The notes beneath the pieces were generated by a model. It was not told the origin of the DNA, made no database searches, and saw only the letters and a list, made by a program, of their open reading frames with translations. This document shows positions 2,945-8,154 of a DNA stretch of 10,116 bases, piece by piece. The stretch is from an uncultured Lachnospiraceae bacterium (GTDB taxonomy: Bacteria > Bacillota > Clostridia > Lachnospirales > Lachnospiraceae). Position numbers and translations under genes: made by a program. Location of the stretch: NCBI GenBank assembly GCA_958444395.1, contig CAUCOL010000036.1, forward strand, positions 1 through 10,116, written 5' to 3'. How positions within the stretch are numbered: position 1 is the first letter of the stretch; each line of letters starts with the position of its first letter.

Positions 2945-2977
2945 GGCGTTCCTATTTTGAATAGGAGCGCCTTTTTT
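2945..2977 (+). terminator. Rho-independent terminator after GH5
   Basis: A 12-base-pair stem, GGCGTTCCTATT against AATAGGAGCGCC with one G-T wobble and a TTG loop, is followed by six T. It lies 134 bases after the GH5 stop codon and is the first terminator downstream of it. Confidence 0.85.
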
Positions 2978-3044
2978 ATGTTATAGGAAACTTGTCGTTT
3001 CCTATAACATAAAAAACACTCCGTGAGGATGCGCATTTCGCGGA
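2972..3044. repeat. Terminator-linked hairpin repeat, copy 1
   Basis: The arms TTTTTTATGTTATAGGAAAC (2972-2991) and its exact complement (2997-3016) make a perfect 20-base-pair inverted repeat with loop TTGTC. The first six T are the T-tract of the preceding terminator. A second hairpin, TCCGTGA (3020-3026) with TCGCGGA (3038-3044), follows. Copies 2 and 3 are at 5795-5859 and 8003-8035. With A-runs on one side and T-runs on the other, it could also end transcription from either direction. Confidence 0.75.
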
Positions 3045-3415: not shown

Positions 3416-4417
3416 ATGAATATAAATGAAATAGCGAAAATGGCAGGTGTATCCAGAGCAACCGTCAGCCGTTATTTGAATGATGGCTATGTCAGTGAAG
3501 AGAAGAAGCAGCAGATCCGCCGGGTGATCGAGGAAACAGGCTATAAGCCGTCCGTGCAGGCGAGACAGCTGCGAAGCGGTCAGAGCCGGTTGATCGGTGT
3601 GATCATCCCGAAGATCAATTCCGATTCGATCGGGCGGATGGTTGCCGGGATCAGCCAGGTACTGGCAGAGAAAGGATACCAGCTGCTTTTGGGAAATACA
3701 GACAATCATGAAAAAGAAGAATTAAAATATATGAAGCTTTTTCAGGCGAGCCATGTGGATGGAATCATACTGATCGGTACGATCCTGACAAAGGAGCATT
3801 ACAAATGTATGAAGCAGATGGATGTGCCGGTAGTTGTGCTGGGACAGCAGGCACAGGGCTATTCCTGTGTGTATTACGATGACTATCATGCAGCCAGGGA
3901 TGTGACACAACGTCTGCTGAAGAAAGCCCGGCATGCCGGATATATCGGGGTGACGAAGAAGGATCAGGCGGCAGGAAAGGACCGGTGCCGGGGATTTTTG
4001 GATGCAGTAGCTGCGTGGAAGGAAGAAATGGGGAAGCAGGCGGAGTTTGATCCGGAGAGGGATATGGCAGAGGCACTGTTTAGGATCGAGTCCGGGTATG
4101 AGCAGATGAAGCAGCTGCTTACGAGATCGCCGGAGGTTGATGCGGTATTCTGTGCGACAGATAATATAGCGATTGGAGCGATGACATATCTGCGGGAACA
4201 GCGGATCCGTGTGCCGAAGCAGATCCGGTTGGCGGGAATTGGAGACACGGTACTGGGACAGGTGTCGGCAGTTGGATTGACGACGGTGCATTACTATTAT
4301 AAGACAAGTGGAGTCGAAGCGGCGAATATGCTTCTGGGTATCCTGGAGAGCGGCAAAGACATCCGGCGCGAGGTGAAGATGGGCTATAAGGTGATCGTGC
4401 GCGACTCGGTGTTATAG
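3416..4417 (+). CDS. LacI-family transcriptional repressor
   Basis: This 333-residue sugar-responsive repressor has an N-terminal helix-turn-helix (residues 1-20, NINEIAKMAGVSRATVSRYL), a hinge (VQARQLRSGQSRLIGVI, 48-63) and a periplasmic-binding-protein-like effector domain (about 60-333) with typical GRCRGF-like segment KDRCRGF (189-194), CATDNIAIG (246-254) and LTTVHYYY (288-295). The N-terminus and the VSRYLNDGYVSEEK pattern resemble ScrR/SacR-type sucrose repressors, but the ligand is not determined. The ATG at 3416 is chosen because GGAG lies six bases upstream and LacI proteins start just before the helix-turn-helix; longer in-frame starts would add an odd extension. No sugar transport genes adjoin it, so its targets other than its own promoter are probably elsewhere. 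Confidence 0.92.
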   Translation: MNINEIAKMAGVSRATVSRYLNDGYVSEEKKQQIRRVIEETGYKPSVQARQLRSGQSRLIGVIIPKINSDSIGRMVAGISQVLAEKGYQLLLGNTDNHEKEELKYMKLFQASHVDGIILIGTILTKEHYKCMKQMDVPVVVLGQQAQGYSCVYYDDYHAARDVTQRLLKKARHAGYIGVTKKDQAAGKDRCRGFLDAVAAWKEEMGKQAEFDPERDMAEALFRIESGYEQMKQLLTRSPEVDAVFCATDNIAIGAMTYLREQRIRVPKQIRLAGIGDTVLGQVSAVGLTTVHYYYKTSGVEAANMLLGILESGKDIRREVKMGYKVIVRDSVL

Positions 4418-4529: not shown

Positions 4530-4611
4530 CACAAAAAATCACAAAAAACATTATAGAATATAAACAAAATAAATAGTTCCTATTGACGAACAGTACAAAG
4601 CATAGTAAAAT
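4530..4611 (+). promoter_or_regulatory. Sigma-A promoter of the antiterminator-pts unit with phased A-tracts
   Basis: TTGACG (4583-4588) and TAAAAT (4606-4611) are separated by exactly 17 bases, a strong vegetative promoter with start near 4618. Upstream, CACAAAAAA occurs twice, ten bases apart (4530 and 4540), in a generally AT-rich stretch; such phased A6 tracts bend DNA and may help polymerase. This gives a leader of about 240 bases before the antiterminator gene. Confidence 0.8.
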
Positions 4612-4613
4612 AT

Positions 4614-4633
4614 GCTTATCAAATGAGATAAGC
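4614..4633. promoter_or_regulatory. Perfect palindrome over the transcription start
   Basis: GCTTATC and GATAAGC (seven bases each, six-base spacer) straddle the predicted start site at about 4618. This is where a repressor could block the promoter. If transcribed it could also make a small 5' hairpin. GATAAG recurs at 4687 and 4701. Confidence 0.4.
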
Positions 4634-4641
4634 GATGAGCG

Positions 4642-4734
4642 AACCGGATTGTTACTATCGTATTTAGGCAAGACTGGGTTATACTCGATAAGACATAATT
4701 GATAAGACACAGGTTATCACCTGTATTGCTGTTT
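4642..4734 (+). promoter_or_regulatory. RAT antiterminator site 1 with candidate overlapping terminator
   Basis: The run GGATTGTTACTATCG (4646-4660) followed by TAGGCAAGACTGG (4665-4677) matches the BglG/SacY/LicT-type RNA antiterminator: the 5' GGATTGTTAC half, an inner CTA/TAG stem, the GGCAArA 3' half, and an outer AACC/GGTT stem (4642-4645 with 4677-4680). Part of the 3' half (4667-4679) can instead pair, imperfectly, with ACCTGTATTGCT (4719-4730), followed by GTTTT. That is the expected exclusive terminator, though it is weaker than the one at site 2. It lies in the leader of the antiterminator gene, suggesting self-control. Confidence 0.7.
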
Positions 4735-4861
4735 TATCATCAGTATTTATGATGATACTTCATATCAATATGACTGGGAAGATGAGTATGGCGCAGTTTT
4801 TTTCATTCTATGACGGGAGATCGGTTCTATCATACGATGACGACCGGAGGGAATGGATGCC

Positions 4862-5692
4862 GTGAAGATAATAAAAGTAATCAATAACAATGTCGCCAGT
4901 GCTTATGATGAACATGGCAAAGAAGTAGTTGTGATGGGAAAGGGGATTGCTTTTCAGAAGAAGAAAGGGGATCCGATCGAGCAGGAGCGGATCGAGAAGA
5001 TCTATTCCCTGCCGCAGGAGAGTGCGACGAAGTTTGAGTCGCTGGTGAAGGATATCCCTTATGAATACATTTCCACAGCATCCAAGATCATTTCTTATGC
5101 CAAAAGGACATTGTCAAAGGAACTGAATGATACGATATACATTACTTTGACGGATCATTTGAACTTCGCGGTAGAAAGGGTCAAGAATGGGATGGAGCTG
5201 GAGAATGCGCTTCTCTGGGAGATCAAGCGGTTTTACCAGCCGGAATTTGAGGTTGGTTTAAAGGCGCTGGGGGTGATCCGGGACGATCTGGGAGTAGAGC
5301 TCTCAGAGGATGAAGCAGGTTTTTTTGCATTGCATCTGGTCAACGCACAGGTTGGCGGGGACATGCATAAAACGATGAATCTGCCGGGGATTCTGAAAGA
5401 CATTTCCAATGTAGTGCATTATACATTTGGCAGGATACCGGATGATTCAGATCTGTATTATGAACGTTTCGTGACACATTTGAAGTTTTTCCTGGAACGT
5501 TCTCTGAAAGGAGAGGTATATGACCAGGGGAATGAAGAGTTTAACACATTTGTAAAAACACAGTATCCAAAAAGCTATCGCTGCGCACTGCGGATACGAA
5601 GCTATCTGAAAGCAAGACTGCAATGCGATGTGCCGGACGAGGAAGTGACCTATCTGACGATGCATATTCAGAGGATTACGCAGAAGCAGTAG
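4862..5692 (+). CDS. LicT/BglG-family transcription antiterminator (PRD protein)
   Basis: This 276-residue RNA-binding antiterminator binds RAT hairpins in nascent mRNA and prevents a terminator forming. Domains are the CAT RNA-binding domain (residues 1 to about 55, starting MKIIKVINNN), PRD1 (about 65-170) and PRD2 (about 171-276). The four PTS-phosphorylated histidines are all present: His99 (LTDHLNFA), His158 (FALHLVNAQ), His206 (VTHLKFF) and His268 (LTMHIQRI), each one below the numbering of B. subtilis LicT. The GTG at 4862 gives the canonical N-terminus and lies 11 bases after GGAGG. The in-frame ATG at 4853 would add three residues but lies only two bases from GGAGG. RAT-like sites occur in its leader and just after its stop, before ptsH. 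By context it could serve a GlcT-like role; its sequence is closer to LicT. Confidence 0.93.
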   Translation: MKIIKVINNNVASAYDEHGKEVVVMGKGIAFQKKKGDPIEQERIEKIYSLPQESATKFESLVKDIPYEYISTASKIISYAKRTLSKELNDTIYITLTDHLNFAVERVKNGMELENALLWEIKRFYQPEFEVGLKALGVIRDDLGVELSEDEAGFFALHLVNAQVGGDMHKTMNLPGILKDISNVVHYTFGRIPDDSDLYYERFVTHLKFFLERSLKGEVYDQGNEEFNTFVKTQYPKSYRCALRIRSYLKARLQCDVPDEEVTYLTMHIQRITQKQ

Positions 5693-5702
5693 GCGTTCGG
5701 AA

Positions 5703-5731
5703 GGGATTGTGACATTGAGTTGGCAAAACCC
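5703..5731 (+). promoter_or_regulatory. RAT antiterminator site 2, upstream of ptsH
   Basis: GGGATTGTGACATTG (5703-5717) followed by TTGGCAAAACCC (5720-5731) reproduces the RAT pattern: a GGG/CCC outer stem, GATTGTkAC in the 5' half and GGCAAAACC in the 3' half. It begins 11 bases after the antiterminator stop codon. Its last two bases (5730-5731) are also the first two of the terminator stem, so RAT and terminator cannot form together. Confidence 0.85.
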
Positions 5732-5798
5732 GGATGAATAGAACAAGAGAGATTGAGAGAGACTATCTATGCCTATGTTCTATTTATCCGGTTTTTTT
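5730..5798 (+). terminator. Regulated terminator between antiterminator gene and ptsH
   Basis: A 16-base-pair stem, CCGGATGAATAGAACA (5730-5745) with TGTTCTATTTATCCGG (5776-5791), one G-T wobble and a 30-base loop, is followed directly by seven T. It should stop transcription into ptsHI unless RAT site 2 is held in its antiterminator fold. Confidence 0.9.
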
Positions 5799-5859
5799 AT
5801 AGGAAATTTCTCATTTTCTATAAAATAAAAACGCTCCGCAAAGATTTGATCTTAGCGGA
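5795..5859. repeat. Terminator-linked hairpin repeat, copy 2
   Basis: TTTTATAGGAAA (5795-5806) and TTTTCTATAAAA (5814-5825) pair with one G-T wobble. After an A-rich linker, TCCGCAAAGAT (5835-5845) and ATCTTAGCGGA (5849-5859) form a second hairpin with one mismatch. The first arm begins inside the T-tract of the regulated terminator, as in copy 1. Confidence 0.7.
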
Positions 5860-5908
5860 ATCTATTTCATAAAACACAGTACAAACACAAAGAAAGGAAG
5901 TGGACGAA

Positions 5909-6166
5909 ATGACAACATTTCAGTATACGATTACAGACGAGGTAGGAATTCATGCAAGACCGGCAGGGCTTCTGGTAAAAGAGGTGAAAAAATACGGTGC
6001 CAATGTGACGATCGAGTCCAATGGGAAAAGCGCCGATGCCAAGAAATTAATGGCACTGATGGCACTGGGCGTCAAGAAGGGCGATACAGTAACGGTCAAT
6101 GTAGAAGGTGACGGAGAGGCAGAGGCTGCCGCAGCACTGGAGACATTTTTTAAAGAGAATCTGTAA
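5909..6166 (+). CDS. ptsH: HPr phosphocarrier protein of the PTS
   Basis: This 85-residue cytoplasmic carrier accepts phosphate from Enzyme I on His15 and passes it to sugar-specific Enzymes II and PRD regulators. The active site is GIHARPAG (residues 13-20, His15 and Arg17), and the length is normal for HPr. Position 46, the serine phosphorylated by HPr kinase in B. subtilis, is lysine here (NGKSADAKKLMALM, residues 38-51); the nearest serine is Ser41. The ATG at 5909 is preferred because GGAAG lies eight bases upstream and it puts the histidine at 15; an in-frame GTG at 5900 would add three residues and sits inside the ribosome site. It lies downstream of a RAT-controlled terminator and 128 bases before ptsI, so read-through from the antiterminator gene should set its expression, with a possible weak internal promoter (TTGATC at 5846). 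Confidence 0.95.
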   Translation: MTTFQYTITDEVGIHARPAGLLVKEVKKYGANVTIESNGKSADAKKLMALMALGVKKGDTVTVNVEGDGEAEAAAALETFFKENL

Positions 6167-6294: not shown

Positions 6295-7908
6295 ATGGAG
6301 AGATATACAGGTAAGAAGATATTTAGTGGAGTAGCGATTGGCAGAATCAAATTTTATTCAAAGGTACAGAATCAGGTCGTTCGTAAGAAGGTGGACGATG
6401 TAGAGGCTGAACTGAAACGATATGAGCAGGCAAAGGAAACAGCGATTGAGCAGCTGCATGAACTATACGAAAAGGCTGTAAAAGAAGTGGGTGAAATGCA
6501 TGCAGAAATATTTGATGTGCATGCTATGATGCTGGAAGATGATGACTACAATGATTCCGTAACCAATATCATATCTTCCCAGGGGGTGAATGCGGAATAT
6601 GCTGTCGGCATCACCGGAGACAATTTTGCAGAGATGTTTGCCAATATGGATGATGAATATTTTCAGGCGCGTTCTGCGGATGTAAAGGATATCTCCGAGC
6701 GTGTGCTGTCGGTGCTGAGCGGACAGGAAAACAACAGCGAGATCGGGGATCAGCCGGTGATCATTGTAGCAGAGGATCTGGCACCGAGCGAGACCGTACA
6801 GATGGATAAAAGCAAACTGCTGGCATTTGTAACACGTCTCGGTTCTTCCAATTCCCACACGGCGATCCTTGCCCGTACAATGAGCATTCCGGCGTTGATC
6901 GGTGTGGAGATCGACGCGGCATGGAATGGAAAGACGGGCATCGTCGATGGATATACCGGAACGTTTCTGGTCGATCCGGATGAAGAGACGTTGGCGCAGT
7001 ACCGGGAGAAACAGGCACAGGATCAGCAGCAGAAGGAACTCTTGCAGACTCTGAAAGGCAAGGAAAATGTGACAAAATCCGGACAGAAGGTGAATCTGTA
7101 TGCCAATATTGGCAATGTATCTGATCTGGCAGCTGTTCTGCAGAATGATGCAGGGGGCATCGGTTTATTCCGAAGTGAGTTTCTGTATCTGGAGTCCTCC
7201 GATTATCCGACCGAGGAGGAGCAGTTTGCAGCCTACCGCAAGGTGGCAGAGACGATGGCAGGCAAAAAGGTAATCATCCGTACCCTGGATATCGGTGCAG
7301 ACAAGCAGGTAGACTATTTCCATCTGGAGCATGAGGACAATCCCGCAATGGGTTATCGCGCGATCCGTATCTGCCTGACGAGACAGGATATCTTTAAAAC
7401 ACAGCTGCGTGCACTGTTCCGTGCCAGTGCATATGGAAATATCGCGATCATGTATCCGATGATCACATCGCTGGAGGAGGTGCGTCAGATTAAGGAGATC
7501 TCCGCGCAGGTGAAAGCAGAACTGGCAGATGCAGGAATCGAGATGGGTGAGGTCGAGGAAGGCATCATGATCGAAACACCGGCTGCCGTGATGATCAGTG
7601 ATCTTCTGGCAAAGGAAGTGGACTTCTTCAGCATTGGAACGAATGATCTGACGCAGTACACACTGGCGATCGATCGTCAGAATGCGAAGCTGGATCCGTT
7701 TTATAATGCACATCATGAGGCGATACTGCGTATGATCCGTATGGTAGTAGAAAATGCACATAAAGAAGGCATCTGGGCAGGTATCTGTGGAGAACTTGGA
7801 GCGGATACGGAGCTGACACAGACCTTCCTGGAGATGGGTGTGGATGAGCTGTCGGTATCACCGGGCTGCATCCTGCCGATCCGCAAGATTATCCGCGAAG
7901 CAAAGTAG
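6295..7908 (+). CDS. ptsI: PTS Enzyme I (phosphoenolpyruvate-protein phosphotransferase)
   Basis: This 537-residue protein starts the PTS phosphate chain: phosphoenolpyruvate to its own histidine, then to HPr His15. The N-terminal HPr-binding and phosphohistidine part holds His188 in GSSNSHTAILAR (the textbook form is GGxTSH). The C-terminal PEP-binding barrel shows LFRSEFLYL (Arg293), GYRAIRI, MIETPAA (Glu427), the signature SIGTNDLTQYTLAIDR (Asp451) and GICGELGAD with the acid Cys498. Positions run four behind E. coli for the barrel residues, and the length is slightly short but complete. It follows ptsH with a 128-base gap in which I see no gene or clear terminator. The ribosome site is weak (only GGA runs near the ATG), so Enzyme I may be made at lower level than HPr. 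It ends before a terminator at 7966. Confidence 0.97.
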   Translation: MERYTGKKIFSGVAIGRIKFYSKVQNQVVRKKVDDVEAELKRYEQAKETAIEQLHELYEKAVKEVGEMHAEIFDVHAMMLEDDDYNDSVTNIISSQGVNAEYAVGITGDNFAEMFANMDDEYFQARSADVKDISERVLSVLSGQENNSEIGDQPVIIVAEDLAPSETVQMDKSKLLAFVTRLGSSNSHTAILARTMSIPALIGVEIDAAWNGKTGIVDGYTGTFLVDPDEETLAQYREKQAQDQQQKELLQTLKGKENVTKSGQKVNLYANIGNVSDLAAVLQNDAGGIGLFRSEFLYLESSDYPTEEEQFAAYRKVAETMAGKKVIIRTLDIGADKQVDYFHLEHEDNPAMGYRAIRICLTRQDIFKTQLRALFRASAYGNIAIMYPMITSLEEVRQIKEISAQVKAELADAGIEMGEVEEGIMIETPAAVMISDLLAKEVDFFSIGTNDLTQYTLAIDRQNAKLDPFYNAHHEAILRMIRMVVENAHKEGIWAGICGELGADTELTQTFLEMGVDELSVSPGCILPIRKIIREAK

Positions 7909-7999: not shown

Positions 8000-8002
8000 G
8001 GG

Positions 8003-8035
8003 CATTAATAGGAAACTTTTCATTTCCTAATAATG
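8003..8035. repeat. Terminator-linked hairpin repeat, copy 3 (short form)
   Basis: CATTAATAGGAAA (8003-8015) and TTTCCTAATAATG (8023-8035) pair with one mismatch around the loop CTTTTCA. It starts three bases after the T-tract of the ptsI terminator. The second TCCG...CGGA hairpin of copies 1 and 2 is absent; only TCCG remains nearby. The rest, to about 8150, is AT-rich with no gene seen. Confidence 0.6.
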
Positions 8036-8154
8036 TCAAAAATCCGATTTTGTGACAACGTGTGCTATCACTTAATCTATATTAGAAAAAAGAAAAATAT
8101 ATTGTTACGATTAAAAACTAAAACGGTAGAGTAATCTCTGTATCTATGGACAAA

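What the first reader, a model, noticed from the sequence alone, without database searches (positions are those of the whole stretch)
4583..6166. Two RAT sites place the antiterminator gene and ptsHI under one antitermination circuit
Seen: RAT-like sequences at 4642-4680 and 5703-5731 flank a LicT-type gene that keeps all four phosphorylatable histidines, and the second RAT shares bases with a 16-base-pair terminator ahead of ptsH. Known: B. subtilis has glcT-ptsG-ptsH-ptsI with one RAT ahead of ptsG. Here no Enzyme II gene intervenes, so the general PTS proteins themselves seem to be the regulated output. Inferred: a double loop, self-control at site 1 and ptsHI control at site 2, with phosphorylation by the products closing the circuit.
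Basis: partly seen in the sequence, partly recalled or inferred. Interest (0 to 1): 0.75.

Follow-up and report, generated by a model that had tools for sequence, protein, structure and literature searches.

The report
Antiterminator RNA switches controlling ptsH-ptsI
A bacterium related to gut clostridia appears to use two copies of a known RNA on/off switch, worked by one regulator protein, to control that regulator's own gene and then the genes for the general sugar-uptake proteins; the switch is familiar, but here it drives the general proteins directly because the usual sugar-transporter gene is missing from the operon.

Summary
Confirmed: a LicT/BglG-type antiterminator gene (4853-5692) lies between two RAT-terminator switches, the second directly ahead of ptsH-ptsI. 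The two RATs exceed chance (0 hits in 100 shuffles). Across relatives the RAT helices covary, and RAT 3' halves pair better with their own downstream terminator arm than those of other loci do; both window leaders rank first. One correction: terminator 1 ends near 4803, not 4734. A promoter-like site precedes RAT1 and none was found between RAT2 and ptsH, so the switches probably act in series.

The double-RAT design is known (E. coli bgl; C. acetobutylicum bglGTH). Unusual is the output. A relative has licT-RAT-bglP-bglA-ptsH-ptsI with very similar RATs; the window looks like such an operon without bglP-bglA. licT-RAT-ptsHI loci without a detected EII lie in four separate LicT clades. Four genomes with EIIC-less loci of this kind encode an EIIB-EIIA protein without EIIC, one of them in trans. 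The controlled HPr has His15 but not Ser46.

Verdict: real, a new variant of a known kind; expression and signal logic are untested.

The parts
4583..4611 (+). sigma-A-type promoter-like site TTGACG-17-TAAAAT ahead of RAT1
   Evidence: 10 of 12; promoter-like sites within 90 nt before RAT1 in 56 of 67 leaders against 13.1 expected
4642..4680 (+). RAT1 (antiterminator hairpin) in the licT leader
4670..4803 (+). terminator 1: long-range helix 4670-4687 with 4783-4800 overlapping RAT1's 3' half, T-run 4797-4803
   Evidence: (own pairing ranks 1 of 62)
4853..5692 (+). licT: BglG/LicT-family antiterminator, CAT_RBD + PRD1 + PRD2, all four PRD histidines
5703..5731 (+). RAT2 ahead of ptsH
5725..5798 (+). 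terminator 2: arms 5725-5745 / 5776-5796, T-run from 5792; shares bases with RAT2
   Evidence: (own pairing ranks 1 of 67)
5909..6166 (+). ptsH (HPr): His15 present, Lys at position 46
6295..7908 (+). ptsI (Enzyme I)

Best explanation
A promoter at about 4583-4611 makes one transcript that must pass two LicT-dependent switches in series. By default the 3' part of each RAT is taken into an intrinsic terminator, and transcription stops near 4803 (before licT) or near 5798 (before ptsH). LicT in its active form binds and stabilises each RAT hairpin, which takes away the base of the terminator; so LicT switches on its own gene (site 1) and then ptsH-ptsI (site 2). LicT activity is set by PTS phosphorylation of its PRDs: HPr~P, made by the operon's own EI and HPr, phosphorylates PRD2 (activating), and an EIIB~P phosphorylates PRD1 (inhibiting) until PTS sugar drains it. 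The inhibiting EIIB must come from elsewhere in the genome here. The operon most likely arose from a licT-bglP-bglA-ptsH-ptsI operon by loss of bglP-bglA. Supported by comparison here: the RATs, the terminators and their mutual exclusion, the single promoter-like site, the gene order, the relatives. Inferred: LicT binding, the phosphorylation inputs, the expression logic and the direction of gene loss.
For: Both RATs beyond chance. RAT helix covariation over 138 RATs from 83 of 94 licT loci: e.g. pair L10/R-1 in RAT2 sites is U-A 49, A-U 9, G-C 9, 67 of 70 paired against 40.7 in shuffles. RAT/terminator mutual exclusion: pairing of RAT 3' half with the locus's own pre-T-run arm averages -17.7 against -8.3 kcal/mol when swapped between loci (62 licT leaders) and -20.8 against -9.8 (67 second leaders); the window ranks 1 of 62 and 1 of 67. 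Promoter-like sites are enriched before RAT1 (56 of 67, 13.1 expected) but not before RAT2 (13 of 70, 10.5 expected) or after it (8 of 70, 11.1 expected), and none lies at 5800-5908. The four PRD histidines are kept in 104, 104, 103 and 103 of 104 LicT rows, duplicate loci included. Relative G312 has licT-RAT-EIIBCA-bglA-ptsHI; its RAT1 equals the window's outside the loop and its RAT2 differs at two arm positions and in the loop. In C. acetobutylicum bglGTH the same two-RAT arrangement was tested with reporters, a bglG mutant and RAT deletions (PMC12628678, passages).
Against: No expression or binding data exist for this locus. No whole genome is held for the window, so a second ptsHI copy, further promoters or EIIs in trans cannot be checked. 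Forcing either RAT in the fold removes only the base of the terminator (7 pairs at site 1; two G-C and four A-U pairs at site 2) and leaves the upper stem, so antitermination depends on losing the part next to the U-tract. Of the 94 loci, 44 have both RATs and 11 have none by the scan; L007, with licT-ptsHI, has none. 6 of 68 RAT1 and 3 of 70 RAT2 sites had no T-run by my criterion. RAT1 of L008 and L118 is degenerate: seen with the looser scan, missed by the stricter one.
Confidence: 0.78

Rival explanations
1. An ordinary beta-glucoside switch with ptsHI as a passenger: LicT still answers to a bgl-type EII encoded elsewhere, and ptsHI is simply induced by beta-glucosides. The general PTS level is not itself sensed.
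For: Many related LicTs control bglP-bglA; the PRD1 histidines are kept in the EII-less loci, so an EIIB input is probably still used; 9 of 10 genomes searched have an EIIC protein somewhere.
Against: In four genomes with EIIC-less licT-pts loci (G002, G022, G032, G188) an EIIB-EIIA protein without EIIC is present, which cannot transport a sugar by itself; G005 has no PTS_EIIC match, although its assembly may be incomplete.
Confidence: 0.35
2. RAT2 is a leftover and ptsHI is mainly transcribed from its own promoter downstream of the terminator.
Against: No promoter-like site at 5800-5908; downstream regions of 70 RAT2 sites are not enriched (8, 11.1 expected); RAT2 and terminator 2 are under compensatory selection in relatives.
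Confidence: 0.1
3. The circuit has become a transport-free PTS relay: EI, HPr and a soluble EIIB-EIIA report the cell's PEP/PTS phosphorylation state to LicT, which sets EI and HPr levels.
For: EIIC-less EIIB-EIIA fusions beside licT and pts genes in L003, L111, L115 (Pfam) and in trans in G188; the sister of L003 still has the full EIIBCA, 83-84% identical in the two retained parts.
Against: No EIIB-EIIA is seen in the window, and its genome is not held; none appeared among the listed rows for G271 (list cut) or for G005; an EIIB-EIIA could also serve an EIIC encoded elsewhere.
Confidence: 0.2

Closest known systems
Clostridium acetobutylicum bglGTH operon (PMC12628678, passages)
   Same: BglG/LicT regulator between two RAT-terminator switches, single promoter upstream, RAT 3' end built into each terminator
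   Different: its second RAT controls an EII (bglT) and bglH; here it controls ptsH-ptsI with no EII
E. coli bglGFB operon (PMC9678765, passages)
   Same: antiterminator gene flanked by two intrinsic terminators that it overcomes, hence self-control plus control of the next gene
   Different: downstream genes are EII BglF and phospho-beta-glucosidase BglB; Gram-negative, H-NS silenced
B. subtilis glcT-ptsG-ptsH-ptsI (recalled)
   Same: RAT antitermination reaching ptsHI
   Different: ptsG (EII) intervenes and is the main target; the regulator here is LicT-type, not GlcT-type; glcT is not preceded by a RAT (recalled)
licT-bglP-bglA-ptsH-ptsI operons of relatives (G312/L175, G030/L113)
   Same: same part of the LicT tree or close to it, ptsHI in the operon; in L175 both RATs very similar to the window's
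   Different: EIIBCA and 6-phospho-beta-glucosidase lie between licT and ptsH; in L113 the scan found RAT1 but no RAT2

Membership tests
BglG/LicT antiterminator family | N-terminal CAT RNA-binding domain plus two PRDs | tested here: met
   PF03123 83.4 bits, PF00874 two stretches; LicT equivalog over cut-off
BglG/LicT antiterminator family | four conserved PRD histidines | tested here: met
   H102, H161, H209, H271 aligned to histidines of 1tlv
BglG/LicT antiterminator family | binds RAT RNA and prevents termination | not testable with these tools
   needs binding or reporter assay
GlcT subgroup (ptsGHI type) | GlcT equivalog score | tested here: not met
   246.7 bits, cut-off 320
RAT element | conserved two-sided motif with covarying helix | tested here: met
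RAT element | 3' half shared with an intrinsic terminator | tested here: met
   both window sites rank first in the swap test
bgl operon | EII and phospho-beta-glucosidase downstream of the antiterminator | tested here: not met
   only HPr and EI follow; no EII match better than E 0.39 and no GH1 match better than E 0.49 in the window
Double-RAT autoregulated layout | one RAT-terminator before and one after the antiterminator gene | tested here: met

The most novel reading that the evidence does not exclude
An antiterminator freed from any sugar-specific transporter acts as a homeostat for the general PTS: EI and HPr, helped in some species by a soluble EIIB-EIIA, feed phosphate back on LicT and so set their own amount, while catabolite-repression signalling is moved to a separate Glu15/Ser46 HPr paralogue.
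Probability: 0.2. Interest if true: 0.75.

Novelty: new variant of a known kind. Interest (0 to 1): 0.5.

Why it matters
ptsH and ptsI are usually thought of as near-constant housekeeping genes, or as passengers behind a sugar-specific EII. Here the regulator's direct output appears to be the very proteins that phosphorylate it, which would make PTS homeostasis by feedback a testable idea. Comparison of related operons shows plausible steps: full EIIBCA, EIIC-less EIIB-EIIA, then no EII. It also suggests a split of HPr's two classical jobs between two proteins in these bacteria.

Tried and rejected
Rejected: the small hairpin at 4709-4724 as terminator 1 (no strong T-run behind it; the long-range helix is conserved in relatives instead). 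Rejected: GlcT membership. Rfam search gave no RAT-type match in the window; I did not check whether Rfam holds a RAT family. Own-genome searches failed because no genome is held. A search of 397 family genomes for closer LicT orthologues gave 8 with a match at E <= 1e-85, the best 59% identical. I first counted 11 'pts only' rows in the LicT tree; on checking, L093, L095, L105 and L125 (the last two the same gene) and L007 have EII sequence upstream, L114 has a HAD gene and bglA in between and L021 has HPr without EI, leaving window, L008, L116 and L118. My EII queries were of the glucose/bgl type only, so EIIs of other families beside L008, L116 and L118 are not excluded; L008 has only 1,049 nt upstream before its contig ends. 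The window row's EII list was empty because the window was not in that BLAST database; the proper test is. L001's ptsI has an in-frame stop at codon 405 and L004/L112's licT one internal stop, so those copies may be broken or misread; they are left as they are. The absence of EIIC in G005 is not general in its genus (6 of 7 genomes have it). RAT-pattern hits at G188:C3, G003:C34 and G032:C38 look like one conserved sequence elsewhere and were not pursued. Papers: in 10 searches (one search listed 15 of 26) I noticed no listed title or abstract start that describes LicT/RAT control of ptsHI without an EII; I read passages of PMC12628678, PMC9678765, PMC4706839, PMC3526391 and PMC8560693 only, and most subscription papers are not held.

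Full report
WHAT IS THERE. The window carries, on the + strand, a LacI-type regulator (3416-4417), then a leader, a LicT-type antiterminator gene (4853-5692), a second leader, ptsH (5909-6166) and ptsI (6295-7908), followed by a chemotaxis receptor gene. A motif scan of both strands finds two RAT-like sites, at 4646-4675 and 5704-5730; with thresholds that both pass, 100 dinucleotide-preserving shuffles give none. The antiterminator has a CAT domain and two PRDs, scores as a LicT equivalog and not as GlcT, and has histidines at the four PRD positions of B. subtilis LicT. No EII was found in the window.

THE TWO SWITCHES. Leader 2: RAT2's last bases are part of a terminator whose arms are 5725-5745 and 5776-5796, with a T-run from 5792. 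Folding alone favours termination at both sites, by 8.2 and 3.0 kcal/mol over a forced RAT; forcing a RAT removes the base of the terminator and leaves its upper stem.

COMPARATIVE TEST. I took 80 licT loci from named genomes, 30 ptsI loci from 299 genomes of the family of Butyribacter and further regions. After removal of ten duplicate or unsuitable loci, 94 licT loci were scanned; 138 RATs were found in 83 of them: 68 sites before licT in 68 loci and 70 after licT in 59 loci, both kinds in 44. Pairs with at least one side outside the scanned motif covary: L10/R-1 of RAT2 is U-A, A-U or G-C (67 of 70 paired, 40.7 in shuffles), and L-1/R+1 and L11/R-2 exceed all 1000 shuffles at both sites; L0/R8 of RAT1 moves between G-C, G-U and A-U. 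Pairs L1/R7, L3/R4, L5/R2 and L9/R0 hardly vary, or were fixed by the scan, and say little; L12/R-3 does not covary; L4/R3 of RAT1 sites shows no excess. Shuffles ignore relatedness. For the terminators I asked whether a RAT's 3' half pairs better with its own locus's arm before a T-run than the other loci's RAT halves do: own mean -17.71 against -8.28 kcal/mol for 62 first leaders, -20.78 against -9.76 for 67 second leaders; own beats the swapped median in 61 of 62 and 67 of 67, is in the best 5% in 45 of 62 and 42 of 67, and the window ranks first in both. 6 of 68 and 3 of 70 sites had no T-run by my criterion and were left out.

PROMOTERS. A promoter-like site (TTGACG-17-TAAAAT) precedes RAT1. 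Such sites lie within 90 nt before RAT1 in 56 of 67 leaders (13.1 expected from mononucleotide shuffles; 1 of 68 leaders was too short), but are not enriched before RAT2 (13 of 70, 10.5 expected) or 60-170 nt after it (8 of 70, 11.1 expected); none lies at 5800-5908 of the window.

WHERE IT CAME FROM. Of the 95 rows in the LicT tree 64 were labelled EII only, 9 EII plus pts genes, 3 EIIB-EIIA plus pts genes, 11 'pts only' and 8 none, by glucose/bgl-type queries downstream of licT. After correction (see Tried and rejected) licT-RAT-ptsH-ptsI with no such EII match in the held stretch remains in the window, L008, L116 and L118. They sit in separate supported clades: window with L002, L001 and L003 (96/93), L008 with L113 (100/97), L116 with L063, L065 and L079 (97/94), L118 with L114 and L115 (99/93). 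L001 and L003 have licT-RAT-ptsI; L001's ptsI has one in-frame stop. G312 (L175) has licT-RAT-EIIBCA-bglA-ptsHI; its RAT1 and flanks equal the window's outside the loop, its RAT2 differs at two arm positions and in the loop. Loss of bglP-bglA from such an operon is the simplest history; it is inferred. By comparing the printed lists by hand, at least 11 of the 63 genomes (of 299) with a LicT match at E <= 1e-60 have it within about 6 kb upstream of ptsI; the ptsI list was cut, so this is a lower bound. A review notes that in solventogenic clostridia ptsH and ptsI are not contiguous (PMC4706839, passages), unlike here.

THE MISSING EII. In Butyribacter (L003) the gene after ptsI encodes EIIB and EIIA domains without EIIC (285 aa), whereas its sister L001 has the full 643-aa EIIBCA, 84% and 83% identical in the two shared parts. 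L111 (G022) and L115 (G032) have the same kind of EIIB-EIIA beside licT, and G188, whose licT-RAT-ptsHI locus has no EII match, encodes a 269-aa EIIB-EIIA elsewhere. In the listed part of the search of 299 genomes these four were the only full-length matches in short frames (the list was cut). In three of the four the protein lies in the licT locus itself, so only G188 is an independent co-occurrence. The EII-less LicTs keep their PRD1 histidines, so an EIIB input in trans is likely. The window's own case cannot be checked. With a strict RAT pattern, G001, G002 and G005 have one hit each, at this locus; the pattern misses degenerate RATs.

HPr. The window HPr has His15 and Lys46. All 20 licT-linked HPrs examined (some with an EII in the locus) have His15 and Lys, Arg or Gln at 46. 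Of 19 paralogues taken from the list in nine of these genomes (weak matches and G004 left out), nine, one in each genome, have Glu15 with Ser46, five have His15 with Lys, Arg or Gln46, and five more distant ones have His15 with Ser46. The Glu15/Ser46 type resembles Crh, described as an HPr homologue that lacks His15 and serves catabolite repression (PMC3526391, passages). So the RAT-controlled HPr would be a pure phosphoryl carrier; this is inference.

KNOWN SYSTEMS. The double switch around the regulator gene is known from E. coli bgl (PMC9678765, passages) and was tested with reporters, a bglG mutant and RAT deletions in C. acetobutylicum bglGTH (PMC12628678, passages). That LicT is phosphorylated by EI and HPr is in the title of Lindner et al. 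1999, seen only in a reference list. The signs of PRD1 and PRD2 phosphorylation and the B. subtilis glcT-ptsGHI layout are recalled.

VERDICT. It is a new variant of the LicT/RAT double-switch operon in which ptsHI is the direct output. Whether it works as a PTS homeostat is open.

Noticed in passing
2976-3015, 5792-5831, 8001-8040: A 40-nt hairpin repeat (TATAGGAAA..TTTCCTATA type) in three copies (83% and 63% identical to the first), lying at or near terminator-like sequence; the second overlaps the T-run of terminator 2. Possibly a dispersed terminator-linked repeat.
   Followed up: partly
L130, L132, L134, L136, L138, L141, L142, L146, L147: Each of nine sampled genomes has an HPr paralogue with Glu15 in place of His15 and Ser46 kept (Crh-like).
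   Followed up: partly
L003 9013-9870, L111 2712-3515, L115 2524-3384, L150 3697-4506: EIIB-EIIA fusions without EIIC, three beside licT and pts genes and one alone in trans.
   Followed up: yes
L156 2091-2813: In the Cellulosilyticum assembly G005, which has no PTS_EIIC match, a 240-aa frame with an N-terminal hydrophobic stretch and an EIIA-like part.
   Followed up: partly
L021 6001-8843: licT directly followed by HPr and a sensor histidine kinase gene with a Cache domain; no EI match downstream.
   Followed up: no
G188:C3:41445, G003:C34:8760, G032:C38:110335: Near-identical RAT-pattern matches in three genomes away from licT; a conserved sequence of unknown meaning.
   Followed up: no
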